Source: Cordia subcordata (lineage: Eukaryota; Streptophyta; Magnoliopsida; Boraginales; Cordiaceae). From it: 64,000 nt of DNA. A model generated the notes under the pieces. That model worked only from the letters and a program-made list of their open reading frames with translations, did no database searches and had not been told where the DNA came from. Each line of letters opens with the position of its first letter. The first letter of the stretch is position 1. A program made the position numbers and the translations under genes. Positions 26,801 to 59,903 of this stretch are shown here, piece after piece. Location: assembly GCA_028554755.1 (NCBI GenBank), contig JAPTOF010000036.1, positions 248,001 to 312,000 on the forward strand, in the 5' to 3' direction.

Positions 26801-27074
26801 TCTTGGAGAAAATTGAGAGCAAACTTGATAATTGGACCACAAAATGGCTCTCCTATGCGGGTAGGTTGCTTCTTATTAAAACAACCCTTACCCAAATTTG
26901 TTCCTATTGGGCTGGAATTCTTTTACTCCCAAAAGGCATTATCTCAACTCTTGAATCAAAATTCAAGGCTTTCTTATGGCGGGACACAGGTGCAAAAATT
27001 GCTTGGAAGTATATTTGCTTTCCACTTAAGGAAGCTTCAAAGGGAAAGATTCATGTTTCTCTCTCTAGAAATAA

Positions 27075-27119
27075 ATGCTCTCACATCTCTCTAACTTGAC
27101 CATCTTCCACCACCATTGA
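27075..27119 (+). promoter_or_regulatory. Leader upstream ORF in K
   Basis: 14-codon uORF beginning MLSHLSNL, 19 nt from the conserved 5' edge, stop TGA 27117-27119. N and P have the same opening. It lies 56 nt before the ORF1 ATG, a distance that allows reinitiation. Confidence 0.48.
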
Positions 27120-27174
27120 CCACCTCTTATGACCACCATTTTTCCACCACCATCAACCTTTCTTTTCCACTTTC

Positions 27175-29414
27175 ATGGGTAAAAAGAAACGATCTAGTGC
27201 ATCCAAATCTAGGAGGAGTGCTAGACTTGCTGCAAAAGCTAAACTTTGCAATTATGAAGAAGAAGAAGATTACACTTTAGAGTCTTTCATGGAACTCAAG
27301 GAAGCTTGTGACTCCATTAACAACAAACTTTCAAGCTCGGATGCTGGTTCTCCCTCCACTAGCTTGCATAAACTTGAGCATAATCTCGATGAAGCAAAAA
27401 GGCAGCTCGTGCAAAGCTTGATCAAGAAAGGAGCTTCTTCCTCAAAGTCCATTCCTTATGCTAATGCACAAGTTGAGCTCGGTAAAGTTTCAGCTAGGGC
27501 TGGCTTTGATTCTCCCATGCTATTTGGATCTTGTTCTCACCATAATAATGTGAAGAGCAACATGGAAGTATCACAATGTGATTTTCAGCAAGCGAAAATG
27601 CAAGGTATGGACTCCTTTTCAAGCTCCAACAAATCGGGTTTCTTTGGAGAAGAAAGTGACTCACTCCAGTCTTTGTCCAAAGGTCCTTCGGCTAGTAAAG
27701 TACAAGTGCAATCAGATTTGTCATCTCCTTTTTCTGGTCAAAAGACCAACTTTTCTGGCCAAGCAAATCATTTTTTGACAACTCACCACTCTTATCCCAA
27801 AGAGGAATCACAACCATTCATCCAAAATGCATTTTTGGTGGGAAATAAAGATGATTTCCCCCCTTTAAACTCACAATCGGCTGAAAAGATTTCCTCCCCA
27901 TGTGGCTGCCAACCTTCTTTTGACATGGATGCCAACTCATCAAAGGATGCCACCTCATCAAAACACATGAATCAGCAACAAGAAGCAAAGAATGGTGCGT
28001 TTTTTACTTCAACTCAGGAAAAATTCTTGCAAATCTCAAGATTTTCCCACTCTTTCCCAGCAAATTATGGGCGGAAATTGGATGCACAAGCTATGCATGG
28101 TCAGCCACAATTTTCAACTTTAAATGCTTTGGGCAGTAGCTTTGGTGATTCCACCAAACCGCACGTGAATAGCAAAGCTGAATTTGACGAGCATGGGCGA
28201 ACTTTCAATGGGATAGGCAGCAAGGATTCTAAAGCTCCTCCTAATGCATGGGCCAACAATATAAATTGGAGAATCAATTACCTTGGTAAGATTGAGAACC
28301 CTCTTAAACTTGAATACTTTGAACCTATTGCATATGAAAATACTTGGGGTGCTGTTCCACCAAGAAGTTTTTGAGGAAGGTGATAATTGTTGGAAGCATT
28401 GCCTACTTGGTCAATTTCTTGAAAGACCTCCATTCTTCTTGATACGGAAATTTGTTGATTACCACCGGAAAACGTTTGGTCATGTTGAGATTAAGACTTG
28501 CTTGAATGGTCTATTTATCTTTCAATTTGAAAATGAGGAAGCTTGTGACAAAGCCCTTGAGCAATTATGGCACGTTAATTTCAGACCCTTGTTGCTTGAA
28601 AATGGAACTTGGATGCTCAAATTTTTAACTTTGAATGGGATAAAATCCTCCTTGGGTGAAATTGAGAAATATCCCATGTAGCTTGATGACTAGAAGGGGC
28701 TTAGTTATATTGCTAGCACTATTGGTACTCCTCTCCAAATGGATTCTCTCACTCAATCACGTACTTTTATTGGGTTTGCTCGTGTTTGTATTGAAGTTAA
28801 TCTTGAAAAGATTTACCGAATTCACCTTTGTCCGGCTTAGAGATGGCACTTGGGCAAAGATTGATATTGAATATGCATGGAAGCCTCTAAAATGCAATAG
28901 TTGCAAAGTGATTGGGCACAACCTTGACTCGTGCCCAAAAAACTCAATGGGGATTCAAAAGCAACTTTAGAGGAAGAAAGCAAATGAAGCTAGGAAACCC
29001 CGCTATCAAAATGAGTGAAAGGTGATTAAGGATAAAAGGGGGCAGCAAAATGACACCAAGTTTATCAATGCACAAGCACTTTCTCCTAACCGTTTTGAAG
29101 CTCTTGGGGTTGATGAAGGAAATGCCGACGCAAATCATGGTAGCATATCAAATGAAGATCGCGTTGGAAAGGAAAATAATGAGACATGCATTGCTTTTAA
29201 AGAACCAAATTATGTTGCTGATCCCACCCAAAAAGATTTTGATTTTGTTGTTGGAAAGAACTATCTTGAGAAGGAAAATGTTGATGTACCAAAAGGCTTG
29301 GCTTGTCATAAGGATGGTGGAATTGTAGATTATGCGATTGGAGAAGCTAGGGAGAGTAGGCAAGAGATTGACCATGCTAGGAGATCTTCCACTCCTATTG
29401 GTCAAGGCACTTGA
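27175..29414 (+). pseudogene. ORF1 of ORF1-only element K
   Basis: Opens with MGKKKRSSASKSRRSARLAAK: a lysine cluster then RRSARLAAK, matching the core of the animal HMGN nucleosome-binding motif. The first frame is open for 399 codons (to 28374) with the linker motif DDFPPL at 27850. The DUF4283-like domain follows in two shifted frames (FIFQFENEEACDKALEQLWHVNF near 28515; IASTIGTPLQMDS near 28715, by homology), then FVRLRDGTWAKIDIEYAW and an intact knuckle CNSCKVIGHNLDSC (28893-28934). Stops at 28966 and 29017 and frameshifts near 28365, 28600, 28680 and 28815 break it. The acidic tail ends in GQGT, TGA 29412-29414. Confidence 0.9.
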
Positions 29415-29490
29415 GTTGCTCTTCCTTCGGTTTTCCTTGCTTTCTCTTGTCCTTTCATTGTTTTTCATTTTTTTTTTTTTTGTCTTGCTT

Positions 29491-29541
29491 AATCCCCAAG
29501 TCTAGTTATGTTTAGATTGTTGTATCCTTGGCTTGGGGGTT
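29491..29541 (+). promoter_or_regulatory. 3' UTR stem-loop of K
   Basis: Arms AATCCCCAAGTC (29491-29502) and GGCTTGGGGGTT (29530-29541) pair over 12 bp with two G-U pairs; loop 27 nt. The same stem with different bases occurs in L, N, P, T and U. It lies about 50 nt before the poly(A). LINE RTs are known to recognise 3' RNA structures, so this is a candidate RT-binding element; that role is inferred. Confidence 0.75.
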
Positions 29542-32500
29542 TTGGATGGTTGTACACCAAATTTGTGTTTAATAAATTCTTACTTGATCCGCAAAAAATA
29601 TTTGCTTTCCACTTGAGGAGGGGGGGCTGAATGTTTGAAAAATTGAGGATATCAATACCATCTCACTTCTTAAGAGCTTTTGGAGAATGTATTCACGGAG
29701 GGAATCAATTTGGAGCAAATGGGTCCATGTGAATTATATCAAGAATGAATCAATTTGGACCATCACCACACCTAAAGATGCTAGTTGGATCCTTAAATTG
29801 TTGATTAAATGCCGAGACATTGCAAGGAGTTTTATCACCCATTCCGTGGGAGATGGGAAAAACACTCATTTTGGCTTGATAAATGGCATTCGAATGGGCT
29901 TCTTGGCAGCCATTGAGCTCCACTTTCCCTACTCCACATTACTTCGCAAAGGTTAGTGATGCTTTCCAACATAACACTTGGAGTTGGCCTATTCATCTTT
30001 TGCATGTTGATGTCCCCCTTCTCCTTTTAAATGAGGAAAATGCTGATACTTACATTTGGGATCTCTCCCCCAATGGAACTTTTAGTTTCAAGCATACATG
30101 GGAGCATTTTAGAACAAGAAAAGAGAAGGCAAAATGGCACAATCTTGTTTGGTTCAAGGACATACCCCAAGACATGCTTTCATTTGTTGGCTTGCTTGTT
30201 GGGATAGGCTTAATACAAAATTCAGATTATTATCTTGGGGAAAGATATCAATCCAACATGTATCTTTTGCAACATGGGAGTGAAACTTGAAATCATCTTT
30301 TCTTTGATTGTTGCTTCACAAAAAGAATCTGGAAGCAGGGACTTCAGCTCATAATGGTTCGCACAAATTTGACAAATTGGGATGATATCTTGGTATACAT
30401 TACTCCCTTTGCTCTTGAAAAGAATCTCAAAGCAACTATCTTGAAGCACTTGGTGGGAGCCACTATTTATCACATTTGGATTGAAAAGAACACTAGAGAA
30501 TTCAGCAAAGTGTTTAAAACTGAAGAGCATATTTTCTCGTCCATTGTAAATGATATTAGGCTTAAATGTTCCATGGGAAAGAAATTTACTTCCTCTTGTA
30601 TTAACAAATCTCTTTGCAAATCTTGGAGGCTTGAAGATATTCTTGTATAGGGCTGTCTCCTTGGCCTCTTTTGTATTGTACATTTTTTAATTTATTCTCA
30701 CTTTCTTTGCGAAAAAAGAAAGCCGATTGTTGCACCATGAATCAAGCTTAGCATTTATTTTCTCCAAAAGAGGGCAGCAATCATTCTTCCTAAGCTTTCT
30801 TGAAACAAGTGGAATGCCCAAGTAACGAATTGGTAGCTCGCCTTCTGGAAAACCAACCCTATCAATGATAGCACTTTTCTCCTCATTTGAGACCCCACCA
30901 AGGAAGATTACACTCTTCGCATTGTTGATAATCAGCCTCGAATATGTTGAGAAGGTCTCTTCAATGTATCCACGATGAAATTTATAGAATTCAAGTCCCC
31001 TTTACAAAAGATAAGGAGATCATCCACAAAACATAGGTGATTGAGCTTCCTGCTTCCACATTTTGGATGAAAAATGAAATCTCGGGTTATTTTCCAATTT
31101 GTTGAGCATACAAGTGAGGACCTCCATACAAAGGACAAAAAGATAAGGGGAGATAGGATCTTCTTGTCTAATGCCATTTGCACCATAGAAATAACCTTCC
31201 AATCCTCTATTGAGGGCAATAGAGAAGCTGGGAGTTTTGACACAAACCATAATCCAATCCACAAACTTCTTGGGAAAACCAAATGAAAGAAGTGTGCATT
31301 CAATGAATCTCCAATTCAAGGAGTCAAAAGCTTTCATAATGTCAACTTTAAATGCACATCTTGAAGAAATATGACTCCTTGAGTATCCTCTCATAATTTC
31401 ATGTGCAATGAGAATATTTTCATGAATGAGTCTACCCTTTATGAAGGCTGATTGGTTCCATGAGATGATGTGGGATAAACAAATTTTAAGCCTATTTGCA
31501 ATGATCTTGGAGATGCACTTGTAAATGGTATTGCAACAAGAAATTGGCCTAAAATCTTTAACCATGGAAGGATTTGGAGGTTTTGGCACAAGAGCAATAA
31601 TGGTGGCATTTACCTCTTTGAGAAGCTTGCTTCATTGAAAAAAGGAGTTGATTGCATTCAAGACATCCTTCCCTACAATCTCCTAAGCAACCATGTAAAA
31701 GTGTGAAGTGAAGCCATCCGGACCCGGGCTTTTGTTTGGGTTGAGGGAGAAGAGGGCATCCTTGATTTCTTCATTTGTGATAGGTGCAATGGTGGTGGTA
31801 GCAGCATCTTGATCAATTGATGTGTCAATAATATCCTTCAAAATATCCACATTTATGCTTGAGGAGAATTCGGCACCAAGAAGTTTTTTGAAGTAGCCAA
31901 TGAATTCATCTTTCACTTCAGCATCTTAAATAAGGAGATGACCATTCTCATTCTTGATAGCATGGATAGTATTTTTGAGCTTCCTTCCTTTAACAACATT
32001 GTGGAAGAATTTTGTATTTGAGTCCCCTTCTTTGATCCAAGAGAGTCTTGATTTTTGATATAGCAAGGCTTTATGTTTTGCATCAAGCTCTTCCAATTTG
32101 CTCAAAATGCACTTCTCCTTGTCAATAAGAATGTTATTATGCTCACCATTAAGAAGAGAATATTGAACATTATCAAGCTCCTCCCAAAGATTTTTGATGG
32201 CAAATGGGATGGTAGCAAAATGCTTTTTGTCAAAAGATTTGAGAGCAAGCTTAATAGTTTTTGCTTTTGATAGAGAATGTACATTGGTGTACCAAAGACC
32301 CGTGTACACCAATGGTCTTCAACAAGCTTCAAGAAATCCAAGTGAGAGGCCCAAGCAAAATAAAATTTGAAAGGCTTTGGTGAGGATTTCCAGGACTTAC
32401 AAGTTTGCATGATGAGAGGGCAATGATCGGAGATGTCGGGCTGTCCACCAAAAGAAAGGAATGTTGGTAGTTGTGTAACCAATTTCCACTGATTAAAGCT

Positions 32501-32979
32501 CTATCAAGCTTGCTTGCCGAGTAGTTATCTTCATGACTCCTATTCATCCAAGTAAAGTGTGGCCGATGTCGTTAACTTCCTGCAAGTTTGCTTTTGCCAC
32601 AAAATTTTTGAAAGCTTCAGCGCTTTTGGAATGGAAGAAGAGTTAGATTTGTCACCACAATGCAAGACCTCATTGAAATCACCCAAAATACAAAAATCAC
32701 TTTCTTCACACCATGCACACCAAAGATCAAGTTTGCTCCAAAGTTCATTTCTTTTGATGCTTCATTGTGGCCATAGATAAAGGCAACAAAGAAAGATTAC
32801 GAATTTGATCATCAAAATTAAAGAGCAAGGCTTGATCACAAGAGTCAATCCATGTTGCTTTGATACCTTTCTTCCAAAAAAGCCAAATCCGCCCCTTAAC
32901 AAAATCATCTAAGTAACTTTTTTTTGTTTGCTAGGTAAATAAGATTAAAATTACATAAATTTGTAATGATACATCCAAA

Positions 32980-33031
32980 CCCCTCAAATCATAAAATACA
33001 AACAAAACTAACCAAATCTAGATTTAAGGGG
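32980..33031 (-). promoter_or_regulatory. 3' UTR stem-loop of L
   Basis: In sense orientation CCCCTTAAATC (33031-33021) pairs with GATTTGAGGGG (32990-32980): 11 continuous pairs with one G-U. Same position relative to the poly(A) as in the ORF1-only elements, although L also carries the start of ORF2; this is the main mark that its 3' end came from the ORF1-only family. Confidence 0.75.
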
Positions 33032-33113
33032 CAAGTAATATAGCAAAAAAGGTCCAATGATAAAATGACGAACAATAAAGCAAGATACATCCAAGGAAAA
33101 CAAAGAAAAGAGA

Positions 33114-33350
33114 TCAAGTCTTCCAACCCTTTGAAGTAGGCGCTTCAAGAGTAGTTGGAATACCGGAGACTTCCTTTTGCCTTCCAATTTTATCAAAACG
33201 AGCACAAATAAGTTTGATGCTATCATCACTAACCACTTTGTTCTCCAAAAGACATAGAATGTCCAAGTAATGTTTATTGATTAACAACTTTGCTTCATTT
33301 TGTTTAATTGGGGAATTGAGCCCCTTAATATTCCAAGAGCAAAGATTCAT
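33114..33350 (-). pseudogene. LINE L ORF2 stub fused to an ORF1-only tail
   Basis: 78 codons starting MNLCSWNIKGLNSP. The first ~55 residues are the endonuclease N-terminus (ILCLLENKVVSDDSI, ARFDKIG). The sequence then jumps to a short tail ending KGWKT, stop ACT-TGA. Tails of K (GQGT), T (QPYT) and U (SPCT) all end in Thr with ACTTGA, so the last ~20 codons look like the end of an ORF1-only ORF1. None of the endonuclease catalytic residues beyond the first Asn/Glu region is present; no enzyme activity is expected. Confidence 0.78.
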
Positions 33351-36201: not shown

Positions 36202-37031
36202 GTCTGATTTTCTTGAGGAAAATTTCCCCCTACTCAATCCGCAAAAAAAAAAAAACAGAAATGTTTCTCTCTCTAGAAACAAATGCTCTCACATCTCTCT
36301 AACTTGACTTCATCCTTCCACTTTTGACCACCACCAAACGTCACCTCTTCCCTTCTCTTTCTTCATGGGAAAAAAGAAAAGATCAAATGCTTCCAAGACA
36401 AGAAAGAGTGCAAGACTCGCTGCAAAATTCAGTCATGAAAGCTTCAATGAGGAGGAAGATTACACTTTGGACTAGCTAGTTGAGCTACGTAATTTTAGCA
36501 ATAATATTTCCAAATCTTGTTCTAGCTCGGCTGGTAGCTCAAAATGTGCTTCAAAGTCTTTTGTTCAGGAGGTATCCTCGTTCTCCTTTAACAAGCTTGA
36601 GCATAACTTGGACGAAGCTAAGAGGAGTCTTGTTCAAAGCTTAATCAAAGGCAGCCATTATTCACATGATGTTTCATCAAATGCACAAGATGAAATGCAC
36701 AACTACTTGCAGCAACAAGATGATTACAAACTTCACAATGGTTCACATGGTCATAATTCTTCTTTCTTCGTTAAGGAAAAGCTTGAAGAAGCACCGTCCA
36801 AGGCTGCCGAGGTTTCCCCTTCCTCGTGCTCTTATGACCAACACCTTAAAGATATGAGATTGTCCAGCCTTTATCCAGCTCATGAAAATGCAAATTTGAT
36901 TGGGCAATATGGGTGTCAAAATGCTCATCTTGGTTTGGAGAAAGAAGATCTTGCTTCAAAATCAAACTCAAAACAACAAATTTTGTATGTGGATGCTTTG
37001 AATTCTAGCTATGGCAACTCGGGTACACGTA

Positions 37032-38246
37032 TCATTCAAAAATTTGTGCTTTCCTTATCAAATCCACACTCTTGCAAATTTGTTCCTTTTGGGTTGGTGC
37101 ATTTCTTCTTCCCAAAAGTATCATTCAAAAAATTGAATCCAAATTTTGTGCTTCCCTTTGGAAGAATACTGGGGATAAGATTGCATGGAAAGACATTTGT
37201 CTCCCTCTTGATGAAGGGTGACTTGGTATCCGGAAGATTGAAGACATCAACAGCACTTTTCTCCTTAAATCCTTTTGGAGAATGTATACTTGTAGGGATT
37301 CTCTTTGGAGCAATTGGATGCAAATTAACTACATCAAGGACAAATCGATTTGGACTCTCACCACTTCTAAGGATGATAGTTGGGTTCTCAAAACCTCCTC
37401 AAAATTGAAACTTTGCAAGAGCCCATATCTCTCATGTACTCGGCAATGGAAAGCACACGCACTTTTGGCATGACAAATGGCACACACATGGGGTACTTAG
37501 CAATTTTTGGAGCAGCACTCTCAACAATCCACCATACTATGCTAAGGTGTGTGACATTTTTGTTTTTGGTAATTGGATTTGGCCTATTCATCTCATGCAT
37601 TTTGATCCACCTTGCACCAATCTCGTGGAAGAAAATCTTGTGCTTTTACTTGGAACCTTTCTCCAAATGGTGAATTCACTTTCTCGCACACTTGGGAGGA
37701 AATCAGAAGGAAGAAGAATAAAGTTGATTGGCACTATATTGTTTGGTTCAAAGGGCATACACCAAGACATGCATTTTTTACTTGGCTTGCTATTCATGAT
37801 CGACTTTCCACAAAATTCAGATTACTTTATTGGGGTAGGGAGCTGAATCCCACTTGCATTTTTGCAACTTTGGGTGTGAAACTAGAGACCATCTTTTCTT
37901 TAATCGTTGTTTCACTAGAAGGATCTGGAGGAAAGGACTTCATCTTACTATGATCCAAGAAACATTGATCGATTGGGGAGACATTATTGCTTTTATTTCA
38001 CCTTTTGCACTCGAAAATAATCTTAAAGCTACTATCTTGAAGCACTTTTTGGAGGCAGCAATCTACTTTATTTGGATTGAGAGGAATCATCGTGAATTTC
38101 ACAAGAGCTTCAAGACGGAGGAGCAAATCTTTTCATCCATCTTTAATCATGTTAGACTTAAATGCATTGTTGGAAAACATTTCACTACTTCTAGTATGAA
38201 TAGGAAAATTTGTAAATTGTGGGGGATGGAAGAAATCCTCCTTTGA
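37032..38246 (+). pseudogene. LINE O ORF2 C-terminal part
   Basis: Starts in the FIKSTLLQICSFW-type block after RT motif C. Frames: LFSLNPFGECIL near 37265, SLWSNWMQINYIKDKSIW (37300), FSHTWEEIRRKKNKVDWHYIVWFKGHTPRHAFFTWLAIHDRL (37680-37810; separate short blocks), zf-RVT CIFCNFGCETRDHLFF with one base lost near 37860, C-terminus CKLWGMEEILL and TGA 38244-38246. No catalytic RT residues. Confidence 0.9.
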
Positions 38247-38313
38247 TCAGTTTGTACTTGTAATTTTGTTTCTTTCTTGAATGAAATTTCTTACTTTTCT
38301 CGCAAAAAAAAAA
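37032..38313 (+). mobile_element. LINE copy O, 5'-truncated, inside N
   Basis: Perfect 16-bp TSD AACTCGGGTACACGTA at 37016-37031 and 38314-38329. Ends TTACTTTTCTCGC and 13 A. Contains only the last third of an ORF2 very close to that of A (both end KLW-R/G-MEEIL). Confidence 0.96.
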
Positions 38314-39423
38314 AAACTCGGGTACACGTAGAGAAGAAAAAGAACAAAGCTAGTCTTTACCCAATGGTCCTTCTGCAGGGAAAGTACAAATTGCTCCAGG
38401 AAATGTTGCTGTCTCTTCTTGCCAAAATGTCATTTGCTCAGCCCCTTCCAACCAAAAATTGACAGCACACCTCTCTTTTCCCAACGTGGAAGGCTCCTCA
38501 CATTGTTTGAATTTTAATTCAACTTCTAACTTAGAAGATTTCCCTCCCTTGGAAGCTCTGCCGAGAAGCAAGTGGGTCAACTCATGTGACTTACATCTTC
38601 ATTCCAACGTGGCTGCCACATCAATTAATGATGCCACATCATCTCTCCATCCAATTCAGCCTTGCTCTCCATAGAATGCAAACCGAAATAGCACTTCTCT
38701 CCTCAACTCGGCTGGAAACTTTTCTCATGATGTTTTGAATTCAACAATTCAGCCACAAGAATTTCAGAATGCTTGGAAATTGGATAAAGATTGGAAGCTC
38801 TCTTACTTAGGTAATCTTCAAGATTCTCGTAAACTTGACTTTCATGCCCCTTTTGAAGATGATGGTTTCATTGGTGCCACACCCCCTAATGATGTTTTTG
38901 AGGAAGGAGATGAACATTGGAAAAATTGTTTAATTGGCCAATTTGGTGGTAATCCTCCCCCCTTTTTCCTCATTCGCAAAATGGTTGATACACATTGGAA
39001 ATCTTTTGGAAAAGTTGACATTAAATCAGCGGAGAATGGGCTTTTTGTGTTTAAATTTGATAGCAATGAAGCTTGTGAACTTGTCATGGAGCAGCTTTGG
39101 CGTGTTAATCATAGACCCTTATTGCTTAGGAAATGGGATGCTAGTGCTCAACTCCTAAATTTTAGTTGGAAAAAAGTACCTCTTTGGGTTAAGCTAAGGA
39201 ATGTCCCTTGTTCCCTTATTACTAGAAGAGGTTTAATCTACATTGGGAGTACTCTTGGAGTTCCATTACAAATGGATAAATTAACGGAAGCATGTACATT
39301 CGTGGGTTTTGCACGAATTTGCATTGAAATGGATCTTTCAATGAACCTCCCGGATCACACTTTTTTTTTTTTGCGGATCAAGTAAGAATTTATTAAACGC
39401 AAATTTGGTGTACAACCATCCAA

Positions 39424-39474
39424 AACCCCCAAGCCAAGGATACAACAATCTAAACATAACTAGACTTAGGGATT
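39424..39474 (-). promoter_or_regulatory. 3' UTR stem-loop of P
   Basis: Sense arms AATCCCTAAGTC (39474-39463) and GGCTTGGGGGTT (39435-39424). Relative to K one C has become T, turning a C-G pair into a G-U pair, so pairing is kept. Confidence 0.7.
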
Positions 39475-39540
39475 AAGCAAGACAAAATGAAAAACAATGA
39501 AAGGACAAGAGAAAGCAAGGAAAACCGAAGGAAGAGCAAC

Positions 39541-40771
39541 TCAAGTGCCTTGACCAATAGGAGTGGAAGATCTCCTAGCATGGTCAATCTCTTGCCTACT
39601 CTCCCTAGCTTCTCCAATCGCATAATCAACAATTCCACCATCCTTATGAAGAGCCAAGCCTTTTGGTACATCAACATTTTCCTTCTCAAGATAGTTCTTT
39701 CCAACAACAAAATCAAAATCTTTTTGGGTGGGATCAGCAACATAATTTGGTTCTTTAAAAGCAATGCATGTCTCATTATTTTCCTTTCCAACACGATCTT
39801 CATTTGAAATGCTACCATGATTTGCGTCGGCATTTCCTTCATCAACCCCAAGAGCTTCAAAACGGTTAGGAGAAAGTGCTTGTGCATTGATAAACTTGGT
39901 GTCATTTTGCTGCCCCCTTTTATCCTTAATCACCTTCCACTCATTTTGATAGCGGGGTTTCCTAGCTTCATTTGCTTTCTTCCTCTCAAGTTGCTTTTGA
40001 ATCCCCATTGAGTTTTTTGGGCACGAGTCAAGGTTGTGCCCAATCACTTTGCAACTATTGCATTTTAGAGGCTTCCATGCATATTCAATATCAATCTTTG
40101 CCCAAGTGCCATCTCTAAGCCGGACAAAGGTGAATTCCGGTAAATCTTTTTCAAGATTAACTTCAATACAAACATGAGCAAACCCAATAAAAGTACGTGA
40201 TTGAGTGAGAGAATCCATTTGGAGAGGAGTACCAATAGTGCTAGCAATATAACTAAGCCCCCTTCTAGTCATCAAGCTACATGGGATATTTCTCAATTTC
40301 ACCCAAAGAGGGATTTTATCCCATTCAAAGTTAAAAATTTGAGCATCCAAGTTCCATTTTCGAAGCAACAAAGGTCTGAAATTAACGTGCCATAATTGCT
40401 CAAGGGCTTTGTCACAAGCTTCCTCATTTTCAAATTGAAAGATAAATAGACCATTCATGCAAGTCTTAAGGAATGGACTTGCATTATCATAAGGAATGGA
40501 CTTTGAGGAAGAAGCTCCTTTCTTGGTCAAGCTTTGCATGAGCTGCTTTTGCTTCATCGAGATTATGCTCAAGTTTATGCAAGCTAGTGGAGGGAGAACC
40601 AGCATCCGAGCTTGAAAGTTTGTTGTTAATGGAGTCACAAGCTTCCTTGAGTTCCATGAAAGACTCTAAAGTGTAATCTTCTTCTTCTTCATAATTGCAA
40701 AGTTCAGCTTTTGCAGCACGTCTAGCACTCCTCCTAGATTTGGATGCACTAGATCGTTTCTTTTTACGCAT
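39541..40771 (-). pseudogene. ORF1 of ORF1-only element P, internally deleted
   Basis: Start MRKKKRSSASKSRRSARRAAK at 40771. One frame change near 40545 separates the N-terminus from a 366-codon frame to the TGA at 39541-39543. Compared with K, roughly 1 kb between the N-terminal coil and the DUF4283-like domain is gone; the join near 40475 carries a repeated AGTCCATTCCTTA, a sign of template slippage. The rest is well kept: NGLFIFQFENEEACDKALEQLWHVNF, SLMTRRGLSYIASTIGTPLQMD, LRDGTWAKIDIEYAW, intact knuckle CNSCKVIGHNLDSC, acidic tail ending GQGT. Confidence 0.9.
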
Positions 40772-41567
40772 GAAAGTGGAAAAGAAAGGCTGATGGTGGT
40801 GGAAAAATGGTGGTCACAAGAGGTGGTCAATGGTGGTGGAAAATGGTCAAGTTAGAGAGATGTGAGAGCATTTGTTTCTAAAGAGAGAAACAAGTTATTC
40901 AGGGCTGGTTATAAATAATGCCCCGGATCACACTTTTGTGAGACCTAGAAATGGTGATTGGGCAAAAATTGATGTGGAATATGCATGGAAACCCCCCGTA
41001 TGCTCAAATTGCAAGCTGGTTGGTCACTCTCTTTCTTCTTGTCCAAATGCACCTATTGCAAATGCTCAAAGTCAAATGCCAAAAGTGGAAAAGAATGAAA
41101 ATGTTTGGAAGAATGCTAAACCAAAGAGGGTTTGGAGAAAAGTTAATGTTGATTCTACACCATTTGCAAATGTGATTCTTGAACCTAAAGCATGCAAAGA
41201 CACCATGGCTTCAACTTTAAAGAGCACTATGGTTAGAAACCGATTTTCAATCCTTGAAGAAGATGGAAGTAAACCTAATGCAAATGACAAAGAAGTGAAT
41301 GGTTTGATCCAAGATAACAAAGAAGACGCTCAAGCAAATATTGAGATCCAAGATGATGAGATTGTTGAGCAAATTCATATAGTGGAAGAAGGGGAGATTG
41401 AAGGGAAGAAGGCTGCTGGTTTGTTTAAAAACCCAAAGGATTCTTCTCCTTGGGTATTGATGGTTCCACACCCATATTTGTTTGTAGTTGATCACTTTGT
41501 TGCTTTGATTTCCTTTGTTGATAAGTTTCTTACTTTTCTTTGTTGGTTTCTCTTTGTTTATTTCTTG

Positions 41568-41615
41568 CCCTTAAGCCTAGTTATGTTTAGAAAAGTTGTA
41601 TCATTCGCTTGGGGG
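41568..41615 (+). promoter_or_regulatory. 3' UTR stem-loop of N
   Basis: CCCTTAAGC (41568-41576) pairs with GCTTGGGGG (41607-41615) over 9 bp, two of them G-U. Bases differ from K and T but pairing is preserved. Confidence 0.7.
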
Positions 41616-44126
41616 GTATTGGTTGGTTTTGTACCTTGTTGCGCATTTATGAAGTCTTACTTAACCCGCAAAAAAAAATTTCCCCCTACTCCAAAACACG
41701 TTTTCAGCAAAGACAAAGGAGCCCCACTCACAAAATGACATGGCTGCCATATCACCAAGAAAATCCACATCAGCCACCATTCCAAGTCAATACCAAGTGC
41801 ACTATGAAAACCGTGAAGGAAGAAATGCAAATGAAAGCAATGATATTCCTCAACAAAATACTCAGCCAAATGCTTGGAGAAAGCCTCCAAAACTTAGGTT
41901 TGAACCTTCTTCAAAAACACCATCTCTTGATTGGGGTAAAGGGTTTGCTGAATTCATTAGTACAAATCTTTAATTTGATGATGAAATTGAGGTGAAAGTG
42001 GTGAATGCAATTAGGGAAGTTGCTGATCCCCCGGAGGATTTATATGATGATGGGGATAAATTATGGACGCATTGTTTGGTGGGTCAATTCATAGGCGCCC
42101 TACCACCTTTCTTCCTCATAAAAAACATGGTTGATTTTGCTTGGAAAAGGTTTGGAAATGTGGATATCTTTCATAAAGGAAAGGGGCTGTATGTTTTCAA
42201 AATTGAGAAAGAAGAACATTGTCAACAAGTGCTACAACAACTTTGGCATGTTAATCATAGGCCTTTGCTTTTAAGAAAATGGAAACCAAATCTTGAATAC
42301 ATCAACCTCAATAGCAACAAAGTTCCATTGTGGGTTAAACTTTGGAATGTTCCAATGAGCCTTTGGTCAAAAAGAGGATTAAATTATGTTACTTCTTTCA
42401 TTGGGCGGCCTATCCAAATGGATACATTGACTGAATCAAGGAGAAACCTTGAATTTGCAAGGGTATGTATTTAGGTTAATTTGGAGGAAAATCTCCCGGA
42501 TGCAATCTTCCCAAAGCTTAGAGATGGCTCCCGAGCTCAAGTTGATGTTGAATACGCATGGAAGCCCTTTAAATGCTCTCATTGCAAAATGGTGGGACAT
42601 ATAGTTGACCAATGTCCCATGAGGCTGAAAACTCAGCATGCTCAAAGTCACCCATTGGCCTATAAGCCCAAACAAAGGTTACAAGAAGATTGGCAAGTCA
42701 TGGGGAAGAAGCCTTCAACAAATGATAGAAGTGCTCCCAACTTTGAAAAAACAAATGATTCAAGTACTCCAAGCAAAATAAGTGATCCAAATCAGCCAAT
42801 TCCTCCAAGCCAAAGGAATGAAGCTAATGAGCCTTGCCAAAAGATTCAACACTCAAATCACTTCAAGGCTTTAGAAGATGTTGATGAGGAAAACCTTAAT
42901 CCTCAAAACATGCTTGAGGAAGGGGAATTTGTTCTGAACCAATCATTGCTCAAAGCACACATCAAGAGGACTTCACTCCTCTCCATCCTTCATGATTTTG
43001 TGCTCTTGGAATATTAGGGGTTTCAATTCCCCTAAAAAGCATAGAGAAATAAAGTTGCTCATTGGAAAGCATAATCTTGATTGTTTTTGTGTTTTGACAA
43101 CTATGTGGATGTAAACATTGCTGGTCGTCTTTGGCTCTTTTGGAGAAAATATCTCAAGGCTACCATCATCGACACCTTTGATCAAGGTTTTCTTTGCCAT
43201 TTTGATGCCCCTTATCATGAGCCTTTCTTTGTGAGTTTGTTTATGGCCGAAATGACCCGTTTAGAAGGAAAGCTCTTTGGAAACAAATTGAGAAATGGAG
43301 CATTTGGTGCAACGAAGACCCTTTGTGCATTCTTAGGGATTTTAATGAAGTCCTCCATAGTGGAGATAGATCCTCTTCTTTTTCTATTCCCTTAAGTGCT
43401 TGGGATTTCAAAGATTGTGTGGGTAAAGCAAGCCTCTCAGAATTCAAGCCATTGGTCCACACTTTACCTGGACAAACAGAAACTTAAGAGGCAACCTTAT
43501 TGGGAGCAAAATTGATAGAGCCTTGATGAATCCTTGTTGGCTGAAAAGCATGGTGGAATCTTTCCTCTTGGTGGATACTCCAGGAATCTCGGATCGTTGT
43601 CCCCTCATCATCCATACTTGCAAGTTCAATCCTCCTTCTCCAAAGCCATTCAAATTCTATAATGCTTGGGTTGCACATGAACTTTTCTTGCATATTGTGG
43701 AGGAACTTTGGAGTGCACGGTTTTGGCACTCCAATGTTCATTTTGTGTCAAAAACAAAAGCGTATCAGGCAAGCTTTGAGGATGTTTGATAAGGAGCACT
43801 TCTCATGCATTCCCCAAAAGATTCACACATTAAAGGAGATGCTTAGTAAAGTTCAAGCTGATCTTATGAATAGATGTCTCAATGAAGGGATTCTTAATAA
43901 GGAAAAGGAAATGCTAATTGAAATTGAAGCTCTTGAGTCTACTTACAACCATATGTTACACCAAAAATCTCGGCTCAATTGGATAAAAGATGGTGATGCA
44001 AACACGAAGTTCTTTCATAGTGCTTTTTTTTTTTTTTTTTTTTTGCGGAGCAAGAAAGTAATTGTATTTCACAAATCAAAGAGAATGTACAAGTACAAAC
44101 AAAAGAGTGGGGGAAAGGAGGAGGCT

Positions 44127-47100
44127 CTAGGAATCAAGCCTCCACAATTTACAAAGTGTTTTGTTCAAGGGGGAGGGAGTAAATTTTCTACAGCAAGTAA
44201 GCTTAACTCTAACTTCATTAAAGATAGAACAAAAAATGTACTCCTCGGTCTTGGCTTCATTTTGAAAGAGTCGCTGATTCCTTTCCTTTCAAATGTGATA
44301 GATGGCTGCTCCAAATAGGTGCTTTATGATGGTAGCCTTCAAATGCTTTTCATGTGCAAAAGGAGTGATATAAGAAGTGATTTCATTCCAAGAAATCAGA
44401 TTCTCCGGGACAAGAGAGATGCGAAGGCCTTTTCTCCAAATTCTCCTAGTAAAGCAACATTCAAAGAAGAGATGGTCTCGTTTCACAACCCATAAAGCAA
44501 AAGATGCATGTAGGGTTGATGTTAAATCCCCAATGAAGCAATCTGAATTTTGTATTCAGACGATCGAGGAAAGCAAGCCAAACGATGAAACTATGTCTTG
44601 GAGTGTGCTTTTTGTGCCAAATAATGTTATGGCCCTCAAAGTTGTCTCCTTCCTTCTAATGTGCTCCCAAGTGTGCTTGAAGGTGAACTCCTCATTGGGT
44701 GAGAGATTCCAGCCAATCTTATCCAAGCTAGTGTCATTTATTACAAAGCTTGGGCTTTCAACATGAGAAAGGTGAATTGGCCAATTCCATCTACCATTTG
44801 TGAAAATATCACTGACCTTTGCAAGGAGGGGCGGATTTGGGAGTGTGTTGCTCCAAAATTGTAAGAGGGAGCCCTCCTTATGCCAATTATCAATCCAAAA
44901 GAAAGTATTAGCTCCATTGCCAATGTTGTGTTGAATGAATCTCTTTGCCTCAGCCCGGCAATTCAGAAGTGCCTTAATAATCCAACCAGCATCCTTGGGG
45001 GCTTGCATGGTCCAAATTGAGGAGTTTTGATATAATTTGAGTGAATCCATTGGCTCCAAAGTGTGCTCTTTTCAGCATACATCCTCCAAAAAGTTTTCAG
45101 CAAGAAAACTTTGTTGATTTCATCAATTTTACGAATCCCAAGTCCCCTTCATGAAATGGGAGGCAAAGATCCCTCCAAGCAACTTTAGGACCAGTTCCTC
45201 TCCATAAAAATGCTTTGAATTTTGATTCAATGGATGACACAACGCTTTTGGGGAGGAGGGTGGCACTTGCCCAGAAAGCACAAATTTGAGTGAGTGTGGA
45301 TTTGATCAAGACAAGTCTTCCCAAAAGAGAGCCAATAATTGCACCAAGTATTAATCCTTGCTGAAATTTTCTCAAAAGAGGTAAGCAATCAGCTTTTCTA
45401 AGCTTTCTTGAGACAAGAGGGATGCCCAAGTAACGTATTGGTAGCTCACCTTCTTGAAACCCAACTCGCTCCAAGATAGCGAGTTTAATATCATTGCTAA
45501 CTCCACCAAAGAAGATCACACTTTTTGAGTTGTTGATTTTCAGCCCAGAAATACTTCAGAAAGTTTCCAAAATACCCATAATGCATTCAATGGATTTAAG
45601 GTCCCCTTTGCAAAAGATAAAAAGGTCATCCACAAAGCAAAGATGGTTAAGCTTTAAGCGCCCACATTTTGGATGAAAATGAAAGCCAAGCTTGCTGTCC
45701 AGCCTATTAAGAAGACAAGAAAGAACCTCCATGCAAAGAACAAATATATATGGAGAGATGGGGTCACCTTGTCTAATACCATTTGCACCAAAGAAGAAGC
45801 CTTCCAACCCACCATTAATAGCAACAGAGAAGCTTGGGGTAGAAACACAAACCATAATCCAGTCAACCAATCTTCTTGGGAAGCCAAAAGCAAGGAGAGT
45901 GGATTCTATGAAGTTCCAATTAAGAGAATCAAAAGCTTTCATGATATCCACTTTGATGGAGCATCTCGGTGAAATATGCCTTCTTGAGTAACCTCTCAAA
46001 ATGTCATGAGCAATAAGAATGTTTTCATGGATAAGTCTATTTTTGATGAATGCTGATTGGTTCCATGAAATAATTTGTGGCAAGCAAAGTTTAAGTCTAT
46101 TTGCAATAATCTTGGAGATGCATTTATAGATTGTATTGCAACAAGAAATGGGTCTAAAGTCTTTGACCATAGCGGGGTTGGGGACTTTAGGCACAAGGGT
46201 GATGATGGTAGAGTTTACCTCCTTGAGAAGCTTGCAAGATTCAAAGAAAGAGCTGATTGCACTAATAACATCTTCTCCAACAATCTCCCAAGCAACCTTA
46301 TAGAAATGGGAAGTGTAGCCATCGGGACCGGGCTTTTGTTGGGATTAAGGGAGAAGAGTGTGGATTTGATTTCCTCTCTTGTGATGGGTGCAATAGTCTG
46401 GCAGCAAATTTTTCATCAATTTGTCTTCCAATGATCTCCTTTAAAAAATCCACATGAACATGAGAGTAGGACTAGTGCCAAGGAGATTTTTATAGTAACC
46501 AATGATTTCCTCTTTCACTTCATAATCCTCCAAAAGAAGTTGCCCATTCTCATTTTTGAGTGCTTTGATGGAGTTTTTGTACTGCGTTGCCGTACCATAT
46601 TGTGGAAAAATTTTGAGTTTGAATCACCTTCTTTGATCTAATCAATTCTGGATTTTTGAATGAGCATGGATTTAAATGAGCTTTCAAGCTCTTCCAATTT
46701 GGTCAAAATGCTTCTTTCCTTGTCCAAAATATAGTTGTTGTGTTCACCATTATAGAGGGCATTTTGGACAGCACAAAGCTCCTCCCGAAGCTCCTTGATG
46801 GTGTTCGGAATACAAGAAAAATGTCTTTTATCAAACAATTTGAGAGCTTTCTTGAGAAGTTTTTGCTTTTGAAAGAGTTTGAACATTGGGGTACCAAAAC
46901 CCGTGTACTTCAATGTTCATCCACAATCTTCAAGAAATCCGAATGAGAAGTCCATGCATTGTAGAATTTAAAAGGTTTAGGAAAGATTCCCAAGACTTAC
47001 AAGAGTGCATGATGAGAGGGCAATGGTCGGAAATGCCGGATTATCCACCAAAAGGAGAGAGTGTTGATAGTTTTGAATCCAGTTTGCGTTCACCAATGCC

Positions 47101-47691
47101 CTATTGATCTTGCTTGCCGAAGTTTAATTCATTACTCTTGTTTGTCCAAGTGAAGTGGGGACCGTCGCTTTAGCTTCTTGCAAGTTTGCTTTAGCTACCA
47201 ATCTAATAAAGTCTTTAGCACTTCTTGGAATGGCTGATGTGCTAGATTTGTCTCCACTTTGCAAGACTTCATTGAAATCACCTAGAATGCAAAAATCACT
47301 ATTAAGACACCAAGAGCACCAAAGTTCAAGCTTGCTCCAAAGAATGCTTCTTTTAGAGGCTTCATTGCTACCATAGACAAAGGCAACAAAAATAGACTTG
47401 TGAAGGTGGTCATCAAAATTGAAAAGAAGGCCTTGTTCACAAGAATCAATATAAGTAGCTTGGATGTTCTTCCTCCAAAACAGCCAAATTCTCCCTTTGG
47501 TCAACTCATCCAAATAATTTTCAAAGCCAAGATTGTCAAACGGGAACTAATATGGTTGATGCTATCATTTCCCACAACTTTATTCTCCAAAAGGCAAAAG
47601 AAATCCAAGTGATGTTTTGTGATCAGCAACCTAACTTCTTTTTGTTTATTAGGGAATTGAGACCCCTAATGTTCCACGAGCAAAAATTCAT
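44127..47691 (-). pseudogene. LINE S ORF2, full-length with frameshifts
   Basis: Start MNFCSWNIRGLNS at 47691. Endonuclease: GRIWLFWRKN (near 47490), CILGDFNEVLQSGDKSST (near 47290). RT: VPNPAMVKDFRPISCCNTIYKC (near 46180), VDIMKAFDSLNWNF (45950), GIRQGDPISPYIF (45780), FVDD instead of FADD (near 45630), PIRYLGIPLVSRKL (45440), FKAFLWRGTGPKVAWRD (45210). The zf-RVT region lies near 44500 in a shifted frame. C-terminus CKLWRLDS, TAG 44127-44129. Frameshifts near 47130, 46920, 46640, 45555, 45100 and 44540. Confidence 0.92.
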
Positions 47692-49686
47692 AAGGAAGTA
47701 GGGGGGGGATCATCAATCCCCGGATATTGATTTACTTGTGAATTAGGGCTGCTTCCTTCAACCTTATCCCCATTCCCCTCATGCTTAAGTTGATTTTGAC
47801 CCTCATTTTCATTTCCATCAGCATGGTCAAGTATTCCAAAAGGATTAGAGTTGACATTATGGGAGCATGATGGATCAAGGTTAACCTTGGGACTTGAAGG
47901 CTGAATGCTGTCTTCCATAGCTTTGGTGACATTGTCGTTCTCAAGTGGCTCTTTACTTGGCTTTGGGTCTTTCAATGGACTTTGTTTCTTGCCCACAACT
48001 TGCCATTCATTATGGATCTTTGGATTGTGCCTAGTGGAATACATTTGGGGCTGCTTGCTGGAATGTAAATTAGTCTTCAAAAGGGCAATTCCCTTCAACA
48101 TGCCCAACCATTTTGCAATGGGCGCACTTGCTTGGTTTCCATGCATATTCAACATCCACCCTTGCTCTTGAGCCATTTCGGAGTTTTGGGAAAATGACAT
48201 TTGGAAGGCTACCTTCCAAGTCAACTTCAACACAAATTCGAGCAAATTCAAGGTTCCTTCTTGAGTCGGTAAGAGCATCCATTTGGATTGGGTTACCAAT
48301 GAATGAAGCAACATAACCAAGTCCTCTTTTGGAGTAGAGGCTCATTGGAACGTTCCAAAGTTTCACCCATATGGGAACTTTATTGCTGGCCACATTGATG
48401 AATTCAAGATTAGGTTCCCATTTCCTCAACAAAAGTGGTCTATGATTAACATGCCATAGTTGTTGGAGGACTTTTTGACAAAATTCCTCTTTCTCAAATT
48501 TGAAAACAAAAAGGCCCTTTCCTTTGGTGTGAATATCAATTTTGCCAAATTTCTTCCATGCAAACTCAACCATGTTTCTAATGAGGAAGAATGGTGGGGG
48601 GGCACCTAAGAATTGTCCCACAAGACAATGTGACCAAAAATAATCTCCTTCATCATAAAGATCTTCCGGGGGGTCAGCAACCTCTCTTTTTCCATCAACA
48701 ATGTTAAACTCATGCATTTGATCAAATTTGAGATTGGTAGCCATATGTTCAGCAAAAACACCTCCCCAATCAAGAGTAGAGGAATTTGTGGAGGGTTCAT
48801 ACCTTAGTTTAGGTGCCTTTGTCCATGCATTTTGGTGGTTGGGAGCCTTTGCTTTTTGTTGGAGAACGTTGGCTTTGCTATTATTTTGCTTGCCAAGATC
48901 AGTACCCAAAGAGAAATGGTTGTCCTTGGCAAGGAAGCTTCAGATCGTGGAACATTTGAGTTGAAGTGTGAGAGGTGCTGACTTGTGCTCCTTGGCTGAG
49001 TGGGATTTCCTTCTAAGTTAGCAGCCACGTCATTTTGCTTACTTGGCGAAGTGGAGGGAAATCCTCTAAGCCGGGCAGTGTTATCTTTTGAAATCCAAGC
49101 GCTGTTATGTCTTTGTCGAAATGTGGTTGGATGAGGCCAAAGCATTGCTGCCATGCACAGAAATGGTTCAGCATTTTCAGACATAAGCCTATTAACCGGT
49201 CCATGCAATGCCCTAGGACCATCGGGTAAAGATCGCGTTTTTTCCATCCTCCTTTTCGGCTGAAATCTCACATGCTATAGAGTTTTCCTTCTTGCTAGGT
49301 TCGAACTCCAGCTCGGTTGATGCTTCAAGATCCATTTTGGTAGAACAATGGCTTGAACCCATTCTTGAACAAGGAGTGGGAGGGGAGCGAGATCGAGATT
49401 TATGGGTGAGACTACAAACCAACTCGGCCTTTGCTCTATTTTGAGCTTTTATATGATCTTTATAAGTGCAGCCTGATTCAAGTGCTTCAAAAACTTCTTT
49501 GAATTCCTTGCTAGAGGTGGATGAGGCATCTTCTCTCTCAAAAGAAGAGGAAGAAGAGGCTAAATCCACCTCCTCATTGAGATTCTTGCCCAAAGGAGCT
49601 TTTGAAGAACCATCCAGCACTTGTTTTTTTGCAAGTATTCTTGCACTTTGCCTTGACAGAGATGAGCTTTTCTTTTTCTTTCCCAT
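47688..49686 (-). pseudogene. LINE S ORF1, full-length with three frame changes
   Basis: MGKKKKSSSLSRQSARILAK at 49686 begins the basic tail. The first frame (to 49213) has a VFEALESGCTYKDH coil-like block and AELVCSLTHKSRSRSPP. Next frames: EDFPPL (near 49065), QNAWTKAPKLRYEPS (48830), LDWGGVFAEHM, HTKGKGLFVFKFEKEEFCQKVLQQLWHVNHRP (near 48530), SLYSKRGLGYVASFIGNPIQMDALTDSR, FPKLRNGSRARVDVEYAW and an intact knuckle CAHCKMVGHVEGNC (near 48110). Tail with NPFGILDHAD, end PPPTSL, TGA in ATGA. The domain order is the model I used for all other ORF1 copies. Confidence 0.92.
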
Positions 49687-49737
49687 GGATCTAAGGTGAA
49701 GGGCAAAGGGATGGGTTGGGATGTGTGAAAAAGAGGT

Positions 49738-49821
49738 TTAGAGGTGGGTGAAGGGGTGGCGTGTGGTGGTGGTAAGGTGGCTGTTTTGCAAAGTTTTAGA
49801 GAGAAGGGAGGGGATTTTCAT
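49738..49821 (-). promoter_or_regulatory. Leader upstream ORF in S
   Basis: 27-codon uORF starting MKIPSLLS at 49821, 16 nt into the conserved leader, stop at 49738-49740. ORF1 starts 52 nt further on. Confidence 0.5.
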
Positions 49822-50191
49822 GGTAGAGAGAGAAAGAGCTACTTTCATCCAAATTGCATTTGTCACACAGTTCTTTCATAGTGTTATCCGAGGAAGGAAG
49901 AGCAAAAACACAATCAATGCTATTCATGATTTGAATGGAAAGCTTATTACTTCAAGTGAGGGAATCAAAGCTGAATTCATTACTTTTTACAAAGGCCTCC
50001 TTGGTACCCCTCCTTTCACTTGTGCAAATGTGGACATCATTAAGGCTACAATTGGTAAATCAATTGATGATGATTGCATTGATATGCTTGCTGCACCTTT
50101 CACCCATGAAGAAATAAGAAGCACTCTTTTCTCTCTCAATCCAAACAAAAGCCCGGGCCCAAATGGTTTCACTTCTCTTTTCTACCAAAAG

Positions 50192-51516: not shown

Positions 51517-51627
51517 ATGCTCTCCCTTCTCTCTACACACTTTGAACTCGGCCACCATTGCACCACCACTCCCAACACCTCTCTCTTCTTCCCCTCTCCT
51601 TCTTTTTCTTTCCTACTTCATTACTAA
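51517..51627 (+). promoter_or_regulatory. Leader upstream ORF in R
   Basis: 36-codon uORF beginning MLSLLSTHFEL, stop TAA 51625-51627, 41 nt before the ORF1 ATG (51669). The inverted piece I has the same opening MLSLLS. Confidence 0.5.
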
Positions 51628-51668
51628 GCACACAAAATCAGTTTGGTTTCGCTCTTGCACTCGTTGTT

Positions 51669-58451: not shown

Positions 58452-58514
58452 TTTTTTTTTTGCGGATTAAGTGAGTTTATTAAAATCGCAATTTGTAACA
58501 TGTACAACCCAAAA

Positions 58515-59838: not shown

Positions 59839-59903
59839 TTTTTTTTTTTGCGAGGTAAGTAAGATTTTTTATTACACGCAAATTTGTAGAAGTACATCTC
59901 AAA

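What the first reader, a model, noticed from the sequence alone, without database searches (positions are those of the whole stretch)
27033..29597. A family of ORF1-only LINEs (a plant counterpart of half-L1 elements)
K, N, P, T and B carry a leader, ORF1 (basic N-terminus, DUF4283-like domain, CCHC knuckle, acidic tail) and then directly a 3' UTR and poly(A); no endonuclease or RT start follows. K, N and P have perfect or near-perfect TSDs of 16-17 bp and complete 5' ends, so this is the real element structure and not truncation. They end, like autonomous copies, in a CTTACTT-like box, 5-7 nt, GC and poly(A). Keeping an ORF1 reading frame in a non-autonomous element suggests its protein acts in cis to capture ORF2 protein made by relatives. 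Mammalian HAL1 is the known precedent; I know of no well-described plant case.
Basis: partly seen in the sequence, partly recalled or inferred. Interest (0 to 1): 0.88.

Follow-up and report, generated by a model that had tools for sequence, protein, structure and literature searches.

The report
Plant LINEs that keep only ORF1
This plant genome holds several old families of jumping genes that lack the copying enzyme but still carry and preserve their RNA-binding gene, so they probably borrow the enzyme from relatives; such half-LINEs are known from mammals.

Summary
Confirmed and extended. The window is a nest of L1-type LINEs in a 472-Mb assembly. K, N and P are insertions with complete ends, target-site duplications (TSDs) and no ORF2. 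B is 5'-truncated; T's 5' end is covered by other LINE sequence. Of 40 scored K matches, 35 (K and N included) are 94-100% identical. None of 35 K-family elements holds an ORF2 domain. Thirteen of 14 distinct insertions reaching the leader have TSDs of 15-22 bp. Fetched copies of sister groups K2 (5), T (2) and P-like (1) also run from ORF1 into a 3' UTR. That 3' UTR has an 11-bp hairpin about 100 nt before the poly(A), with compensatory changes; none of 12 autonomous ends scanned has it. One ORF1-only insertion (L036) is the apparent parent of another (L044). Fixed changes between K and K2 are 2 non-synonymous to 8 synonymous in most of DUF4283 plus CCHC, against 164:44 for single-copy changes (p=2e-4); the acidic tail looks neutral. 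So ORF1's core was selected while ORF2 was absent. ORF2 supply in trans and cis action of ORF1 protein are inferred. It works like mammalian HAL1 but is of plant L1 type.

The parts
27011..27032 (+). left TSD of K (right copy 29598-29619); 22 bp, 1 mismatch
27033..27174 (+). K: 22-nt own 5' prefix, then leader (GTTTCTCTCTCTAG...AATGCTCTC) shared with N, P, X and distantly with autonomous E1/E2
27175..29414 (+). K ORF1 (basic N-terminus, linker, DUF4283, CCHC, acidic tail), about 745 codons, broken by frame-shifting indels as assembled
29415..29592 (+). K 3' UTR ending CTTACTTGATCCGC + poly(A)
29492..29540 (+). 3' UTR hairpin of K, 11-bp stem, about 100 nt before poly(A)
39373..40921 (-). N: ORF1-only copy of the K family with a 1-kb internal deletion in ORF1; TSD 16/16 (40922-40937 / 39349-39364); inserted in P
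36236..41669 (+). P: ORF1-only element, TSD 17/17, interrupted by a 5'-truncated ORF2 fragment (37032-38316) and by N
36236..36262 (+). P's own 5' prefix (27 nt); begins like the 3' end + A13 of another LINE
58462..59838 (-). T: ORF1 from just upstream of DUF4283 (stop 58716) and 3' UTR with hairpin; 5' part covered by other LINE sequence
3704..4572 (+). B: 5'-truncated ORF1-only copy (TSD 14/14 at 3690), ORF1 C-terminal part + 3' UTR with hairpin; ORF1 of a separate branch
59850..60153 (-). S: ORF1-only-type 3' end (short ORF1-like tail, hairpin 3' UTR) joined to an autonomous RT on its 5' side and to T on its 3' side
32926..33170 (-). V: short ORF1-only-type 3' end inserted in an autonomous EN
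58398..58458 (+). X: leader of another element of this type, cut by T
50200..50690 (-). Y: leader + ORF1 N-terminus of T type (MPKKKNH...), no 3' end seen
51493..57189 (+). E1: full-length autonomous comparison element (ORF1, EN, RT, C-term), TSD 17/17; no 3' hairpin
44045..49868 (-). E2: full-length autonomous comparison element, TSD 15/15; no 3' hairpin

Best explanation
These are non-autonomous L1-clade LINEs that encode only ORF1 protein. SHOWN: insertions made of leader, ORF1, own 3' UTR and poly(A) with LINE-type target duplications; no ORF2 in any copy read; several subfamilies; apparent descent of one ORF1-only insertion from another; purifying selection on the RNA-binding core of ORF1 between two ORF1-only subfamilies; a covarying 3' hairpin absent from the autonomous ends scanned. 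INFERRED: transcription starts a few tens of nt upstream of the leader. ORF1 protein (RRM-like DUF4283 + CCHC knuckle) coats mainly the RNA it was translated from. ORF2 protein (EN/RT) of autonomous L1s such as E1, which share parts of the leader and the CTTACTT...CCGC-poly(A) end, is captured in trans and carries out target-primed reverse transcription. The hairpin is a private cis signal for RNP assembly, RT start or 3' processing.
For: TSDs and anatomy. K family: 602 first-look candidates, 40 scored, 35 at 94-100% (K and N included). ORF2 absent in 35 of 35 elements. K2 5 of 5, T-type 2 of 2, P-like 1 of 1 fetched copies are ORF1-only. T family: of the 40 scored matches (92-100%, T included) 35 span the 792 nt from ORF1 CCHC to poly(A), whole or all but 1 nt. 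Parent and offspring L036 to L044. Selection. Five of eight tested frame-shift events fit the K tree no better than shuffled labels, so most are not inherited. A T-family match at C18:826971 lies in an open frame of 843 aa without stops. Hairpin: 6 of 7 ORF1-only ends in the window with at most 1 mismatch (P has 2), 37 of 38 genome loci scanned (2 more had no recognisable end), 0 of 12 autonomous ends, 25 of 800 random positions; covariation score reached by 0 of 500 shuffles. RRM-like fold. Candidate ORF2 donor: E1 family, 40 scored, 96-100%, in the same blocks of the genome.
Against: Mobilisation by E1-like ORF2 protein is not shown directly. Within the K burst, changes shared by two or more kept copies show no deficit of non-synonymous changes (37 N: 13 S, 5 stops; duplicates were left in that set). 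Only L055 of 33 K loci is full-coverage and free of in-frame stops, and it has three frame-shifting indels and starts past the ATG. Three of eight frame-shift events lean towards clustering on the tree (1630, 1792, 1986: p 0.06, 0.04, 0.06), so inheritance of a broken ORF1 is not excluded. Over tail and core together the fixed-change test gives p=0.06. T-like lineages at 58-74% identity could not be checked for ORF2.
Confidence: 0.86

Rival explanations
1. Repeated internal deletion: an unseen autonomous LINE with this ORF1 and this 3' UTR keeps producing ORF2-less deletion copies; the selection seen acts on that parent.
For: Deletion of ORF2 is the likely start of a half-L1; the whole genome could not be read, and T-like ORF1s at 58-74% identity were not inspected downstream.
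Against: 0 of 35 K elements and 0 of 8 fetched K2, T and P-like elements have ORF2 between ORF1 and poly(A). No ORF2 remnant and a short spacer between ORF1 stop and hairpin in N, K, B, V, S and T (67-152 nt, counted by hand). An ORF1-only insertion is the apparent parent of another. No autonomous end scanned has the hairpin (0 of 12).
Confidence: 0.09
2. ORF1 is a passenger: the elements are simple poly(A)-tailed RNAs mobilised by ORF2 protein alone, and ORF1 is decaying.
For: Acidic tail looks neutral; N moved with a shortened ORF1; K copies are full of lesions and shared changes show no constraint.
Against: Core conserved between ORF1-only subfamilies (2:8 against 164:44); dN/dS 0.16-0.19 between T, P and N; long open frames in T relatives.
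Confidence: 0.12
3. ORF1 protein of these elements works mainly in trans, as a shared RNA-packaging protein for the L1s of the nest, not in cis.
For: ORF1 core is 42-56% identical to that of autonomous elements; N, with part of ORF1 deleted, moved.
Against: A trans-only product would not be selected on each source element; a private hairpin suggests private recognition (both inference).
Confidence: 0.2
4. 5' or 3' truncation, or assembly artefact, of ordinary LINEs.
For: LINEs truncate often; the region is repetitive and has recurrent single-base deletions.
Against: Leader and 3' end with TSDs of 15-22 bp in 13 distinct insertions on many contigs.
Confidence: 0.01

Closest known systems
HAL1 (half-L1) of mammals
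   Same: Non-autonomous L1 derivative that encodes only ORF1p (PMC5753468, passages read).
   Different: Here ORF1 is of plant L1 type, with RRM-like DUF4283 + CCHC. Several diverged lineages (K, K2, P, T, B) share a covarying 3' hairpin; HAL1s arose independently several times (same passages). Apparent descent between ORF1-only copies is visible here; whether that has been shown for HAL1 I did not check (PMC2923044 is not held).
BNR-type plant L1 LINEs with an RRM domain in ORF1 (Heitkam and Schmidt 2009; title only, in a reference list)
   Same: ORF1 with an RRM-type domain.
   Different: BNR elements carry ORF2 (recalled).
Plant L1 (ME1) LINEs and SINEs with a conserved 3' stem-loop (PMC3747384, section 16 and passages read)
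   Same: A 3' hairpin with compensatory changes, there taken as a sign of stringent RNA recognition.
   Different: There it lies in the last ~50 nt and is shared between LINE and SINE; here it starts about 100 nt before the poly(A), in ORF1-only elements, and is absent from 12 of 12 autonomous ends scanned.
HaCEN-LINE of sunflower centromeres (PMC4628103, abstract and passages read)
   Same: LINEs concentrated in centromeres; here a centromere-like location is inferred from map positions only.
   Different: Described there by an ORF with endonuclease and RT; 'ORF1' does not occur in its main text.

Membership tests
L1-clade non-LTR retrotransposon (LINE) | plant-type ORF1 with DUF4283 and CCHC knuckle | tested here: met
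   PF14111 in N, P, T and B (E 1.1e-22, 1e-25, 4.9e-30, 1.7e-6); PF14392 in T (25.1 bits) and P (19.2 bits) is below its cut-off of 27; the first stretch of K gave no family; RRM matches
L1-clade non-LTR retrotransposon (LINE) | poly(A) 3' end and target-site duplications | tested here: met
L1-clade non-LTR retrotransposon (LINE) | ORF2 with EN and RT | tested here: not met
   no hit in 35 of 35 K elements: non-autonomous
half-L1 (HAL1-like) element | encodes ORF1 only, no ORF2, complete 5' and 3' ends | tested here: met
half-L1 (HAL1-like) element | amplified as an ORF1-only element | tested here: met
   L036 to L044 descent; 14 distinct leader-bearing insertions of the K subfamily
half-L1 (HAL1-like) element | ORF1 under selection without ORF2 | tested here: met
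   core only; tail neutral, both together p=0.06
half-L1 (HAL1-like) element | mobilised by ORF2 protein of an autonomous L1 | not testable with these tools
   only shared leader parts, 3' box and co-location with E1
mammalian HAL1 proper | derived from mammalian L1 | tested here: not met
   ORF1 carries DUF4283 and resembles the autonomous LINEs of this genome; no direct comparison with HAL1 was made
SINE | short, non-coding | tested here: not met
   about 2.5-2.8 kb and coding; no pol III promoter search was made

The most novel reading that the evidence does not exclude
The ORF1-only elements are a long-lived, self-perpetuating lineage of their own, not recurrent deletions. It has its own ORF1 clade and its own 3' hairpin, which coevolve as a private protein-RNA pair: ORF1 protein marks its own RNA through the hairpin and so secures cis preference while using ORF2 protein of any L1 in the centromere-like nests.
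Probability: 0.33. Interest if true: 0.87.

Novelty: new variant of a known kind. Interest (0 to 1): 0.74.

Why it matters
It gives half-L1 elements a counterpart in plants, with two features that make 'why keep ORF1?' testable: a selection signal confined to the RNA-binding core, and a conserved RNA hairpin found in the ORF1-only elements but not in the autonomous ends scanned. Comparing them with autonomous neighbours that share leader parts and 3' box should show what ORF1 protein does in cis. The 5' prefixes carried from parent loci allow pedigrees of single copies.

Tried and rejected
Rejected: truncation or artefact (TSDs, many contigs). A K lineage with inherited broken ORF1: of 23 frame-shifting events carried by two or more insertion groups, 19 are single-base deletions, many in short homopolymers. 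Some differ between duplicates of one insertion (e.g. L036 and L042). Five of eight events tested fit the tree no better than shuffled labels; three lean to clustering. So assembly error or later slippage is likelier, not proven. N-type deletion as a mobile subfamily: its only other copy seen, L049, has N's TSD and is a duplicate of the N locus. Matches to B ending at 292: the two that I could read (L036, L042) end at a later LINE insertion. L031/L041, counted at first as having a 9-11-nt prefix, rather have a shortened leader directly behind the TSD.

Led nowhere: organism not identified. The protein database gave two hits, then no answer and was switched off. The HAL1 paper PMC2923044 is not held. 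The RT-protein search of the genome did not complete. No full scan for ORF2-bearing relatives was possible: only the best 40 (DNA) or 109 (protein) candidates are scored. IQ-TREE codon runs did not print omega; the run with one parameter fixed at 1 was 122 lnL units worse, and I do not lean on it. About print: the answered searches (HAL1, half-L1, ORF1-only, non-autonomous LINE, plant and similar) listed no plant ORF1-only LINE; I saw listings and starts of abstracts, and passages where said.
Full report
WHAT THE WINDOW IS. The 64-kb window is largely made of nested L1-type LINEs: ORF1 (DUF4283), EN, RT and ORF2 C-terminal pieces on both strands. It lies at C30:248001-312000 of a 472,264,809-base assembly in 62 contigs. 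No call named the organism.

ANATOMY. Matching of right to left flanks gives TSDs for K (22 bp, 1 mismatch), N (16/16), P (17/17) and B (14/14), and for the full-length autonomous elements E1 (17/17) and E2 (15/15). In K, N and P the order is leader, ORF1, 3' UTR, poly(A), with no EN, RT or ORF2 C-terminal match between ORF1 and poly(A) other than in elements nested in P. B starts inside DUF4283, so it is truncated. T's 5' end is hidden by other LINE sequence. Four more pieces of the same kind lie in the window: S, V, X and Y.

LEADER. The first homologous bases of K, N, P and X are GTTTCTCTCTCTAGAAA-AATGCTCTC (N with one change); parts of this recur in autonomous E1 and E2. In 12 distinct K-family insertions (K included) 9-47 nt lie between left TSD and leader; L031/L041 instead have a shortened leader right behind the TSD. 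Most prefixes are unrelated to each other; L036, L040, L044 and L052 share their last 8 or so bases. I read them as flank of the parent locus carried along by transcription from upstream. The clearest case: L044 and insertion L036/L042 share 38 nt at 97%, about the last 12 of them leader; the rest is most of the left TSD of L036 plus its prefix, while L044 has a different TSD of its own. So an ORF1-only insertion was apparently the source, direct or near-direct, of another.

GENOME-WIDE COPIES. A 780-base query from K (end of ORF1 plus 3' UTR) had 602 first-look candidates; 40 were scored: 35 at 94-100% over the whole query, K and N among them, and 5 at 81-86%. I fetched the other 38 loci. Of the 33 K-family loci, 21 begin at K position 51 or lower, one of them (L049) with N's deletion. 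After trimming, 0 of 35 elements (33 plus K and N) holds an ORF2 domain. Several loci are duplicates with the same flank: the 35 elements fall into 22 groups by downstream flank (the pairing of L045 with L051 may be chance). Counted by group, 14 distinct insertions without N's deletion begin at position 51 or lower, K included; 13 have TSDs of 15-22 bp with at most one mismatch, and L058/L060 show none. The K2 group (L064-L068, 87-90% identical to K over the longest shared stretch) also goes from ORF1 stop to its own hairpin-bearing 3' UTR and poly(A), 5 of 5.

T family: 803 candidates, 40 scored at 92-100% (T included), 35 of them over the whole 792 bases or all but one; 3 further short rows at 69-70%. 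Two copies were fetched; both are complete ORF1-only elements of about 2.8 kb with N-terminus MPKKKNH; L069 has a 17/17 TSD, L070 sits in a tandem repeat so that its TSD is unclear. P family: 717 candidates, 40 main rows: 13 match the whole query or all but one base at 96-100%, one at 88%, 4 lack the start, and 22 (93-96%, 11 of them on C57) stop after position 567-570. The one of these 22 that I could read downstream (L071) has its own hairpin 3' UTR and poly(A) there, not ORF2. B type: 9 of 41 rows span the query, or all but 4 bases, at 68-100%, B included.

3' HAIRPIN. An 11-bp stem starts 100-106 nt before the poly(A) in B, K, N, S, T and V; P has it with two mismatches. None of the 12 autonomous ends scanned has it; random positions gave 25 of 800; of 40 fetched loci 38 had a recognisable end and 37 of these had the stem with at most one mismatch (duplicates included). 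On ten arm pairs 93.6% of cells pair, 6 of 11 pairs have changes on both sides (0 of 500 shuffles), the covariation score of 0.432 was reached by 0 of 500, and the number of further pair types by 18 of 500. The arms were picked by hand, which favours pairing; RNAalifold on the whole 3' ends of the seven window copies predicted 8 pairs in this stem, 3 of them with double changes. ORF1-only and autonomous elements share the terminal box CTTACTT...CCGC-poly(A).

ORF1 PHYLOGENY. In the DUF4283+CCHC region T, P, K, N and the database proteins P0001 (from a 959-base contig) and P0002 separate from B plus all seven autonomous ORF1s with support 99.6/99; autonomous against the rest with B has only 71.7/57. 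So B is a separate branch, and the ORF1-only elements may be one clade; P0002 is too far away to root the tree.

SELECTION. NG86 dN/dS in that region is 0.16 (T-P), 0.19 (T-N) and 0.18 (P-N), as in autonomous pairs (0.10-0.21), with dS near saturation. The better test uses K and K2, both ORF1-only. Over 152 codons (DUF4283 from about position 23 on, plus CCHC) fixed changes are 2 N: 8 S, against 164:44 among single-copy changes (Fisher p=2.0e-4). In the acidic tail they are 34:11 against 121:39 (p=1); over both p=0.06 (12 of 33 K loci dropped as duplicates). With the singletons (198:67) the core gives p=6e-4. Results against: changes shared by two or more K copies are 37 N: 13 S plus 5 stops, without sign of constraint, though duplicates such as L036/L042, L035/L059 and K/L043 were still in that set; median dN/dS over 165 K-K2 pairs is 0.60, decay after insertion included, and K2 pairs among themselves give 0.48-1.23.

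INTACT FRAMES. K as assembled has 9 frame-shifting indels; 51 of 59 indel events in ORF1 of the family shift the frame. Of the 23 carried by several insertion groups 19 are single-base deletions. Some differ between duplicates of one insertion, and five of eight tested fit the tree no better than shuffled labels (1580: 10 steps against 11.2); 1630, 1792 and 1986 lean to clustering. I therefore take most for assembly error or later slippage. A T-family ORF1 match lies in an open frame of 843 aa without stops at C18:826971-828095, and T-like lineages at 58-74% identity have open frames up to 936 aa; whether those lineages lack ORF2 was not seen.

MECHANISM. Shown: spread as ORF1-only units with LINE-type ends; selection on the RNA-binding core without ORF2. 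Inferred: ORF2 protein from autonomous L1s. The E1 family is a fitting donor: 1,644 candidates, 40 scored at 96-100%, in the same genome blocks. Selection on an ORF that must serve a borrowed enzyme is most simply explained by cis preference of ORF1 protein for its own RNA; sharing in trans is the chief rival.

KNOWN OR NEW. It works like mammalian HAL1, which encodes only ORF1p and arose several times (PMC5753468, passages). It is not HAL1 itself, its ORF1 being of plant L1 type. I know of no described plant case; the four answered paper searches listed none, in a library that lacks most subscription journals. On checking the draft against the calls I lowered confidence slightly (0.87 to 0.86; novel case 0.35 to 0.33), because three, not two, frame-shift events lean to inheritance and the set behind held more duplicates than I had said.

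Noticed in passing
genome-wide: summed: In each of 13 large contigs of known length the listed matches of the K, T, P and E1 families lie in one block (at most 7.5% of the contig): mid-contig in C1, C12, C34 and C60 (one match there), near one end in the others. This looks like centromeres with contigs broken there. 150 of 167 rows were used; dropped were 10 rows of the C57 array, 6 short secondary rows and one C9 row. B-type matches and some T-like ones (C23 and C7) lie outside such blocks or were not placed.
   Followed up: partly
G000:C57:8745-51120: Eleven P-like ORF1 matches at 93%, at spacings that are multiples of about 2.09 kb: a tandem array that contains part of an ORF1-only LINE. 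Similar spacing of about 1.22 kb for three E1 3' ends on C9 (16046, 17267, 18491).
   Followed up: no
36236-36255: P's 5' prefix begins AATCCGC-A13, like the 3' end of another LINE: its parent may have sat just behind a LINE tail, or RT jumped templates.
   Followed up: partly
59850-60200 (-): An autonomous RT reading runs directly into an ORF1-only-type 3' end (S), then into T, without a TSD found: perhaps a chimeric element, by template jump or by transcription into an inserted copy.
   Followed up: partly
window against the end of C10 (L043, L049, row 2, row 2): K, N, P and B have 98-99% identical matches near the end of contig C10, K's and N's with the same flank: C30 is probably a duplicate or second haplotype of that region.
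   Followed up: partly
35433-57312 (+): One autonomous element (A3) appears to hold four separate insertions: P (itself holding two), E2, Y and E1, a readable order of events.
   Followed up: no
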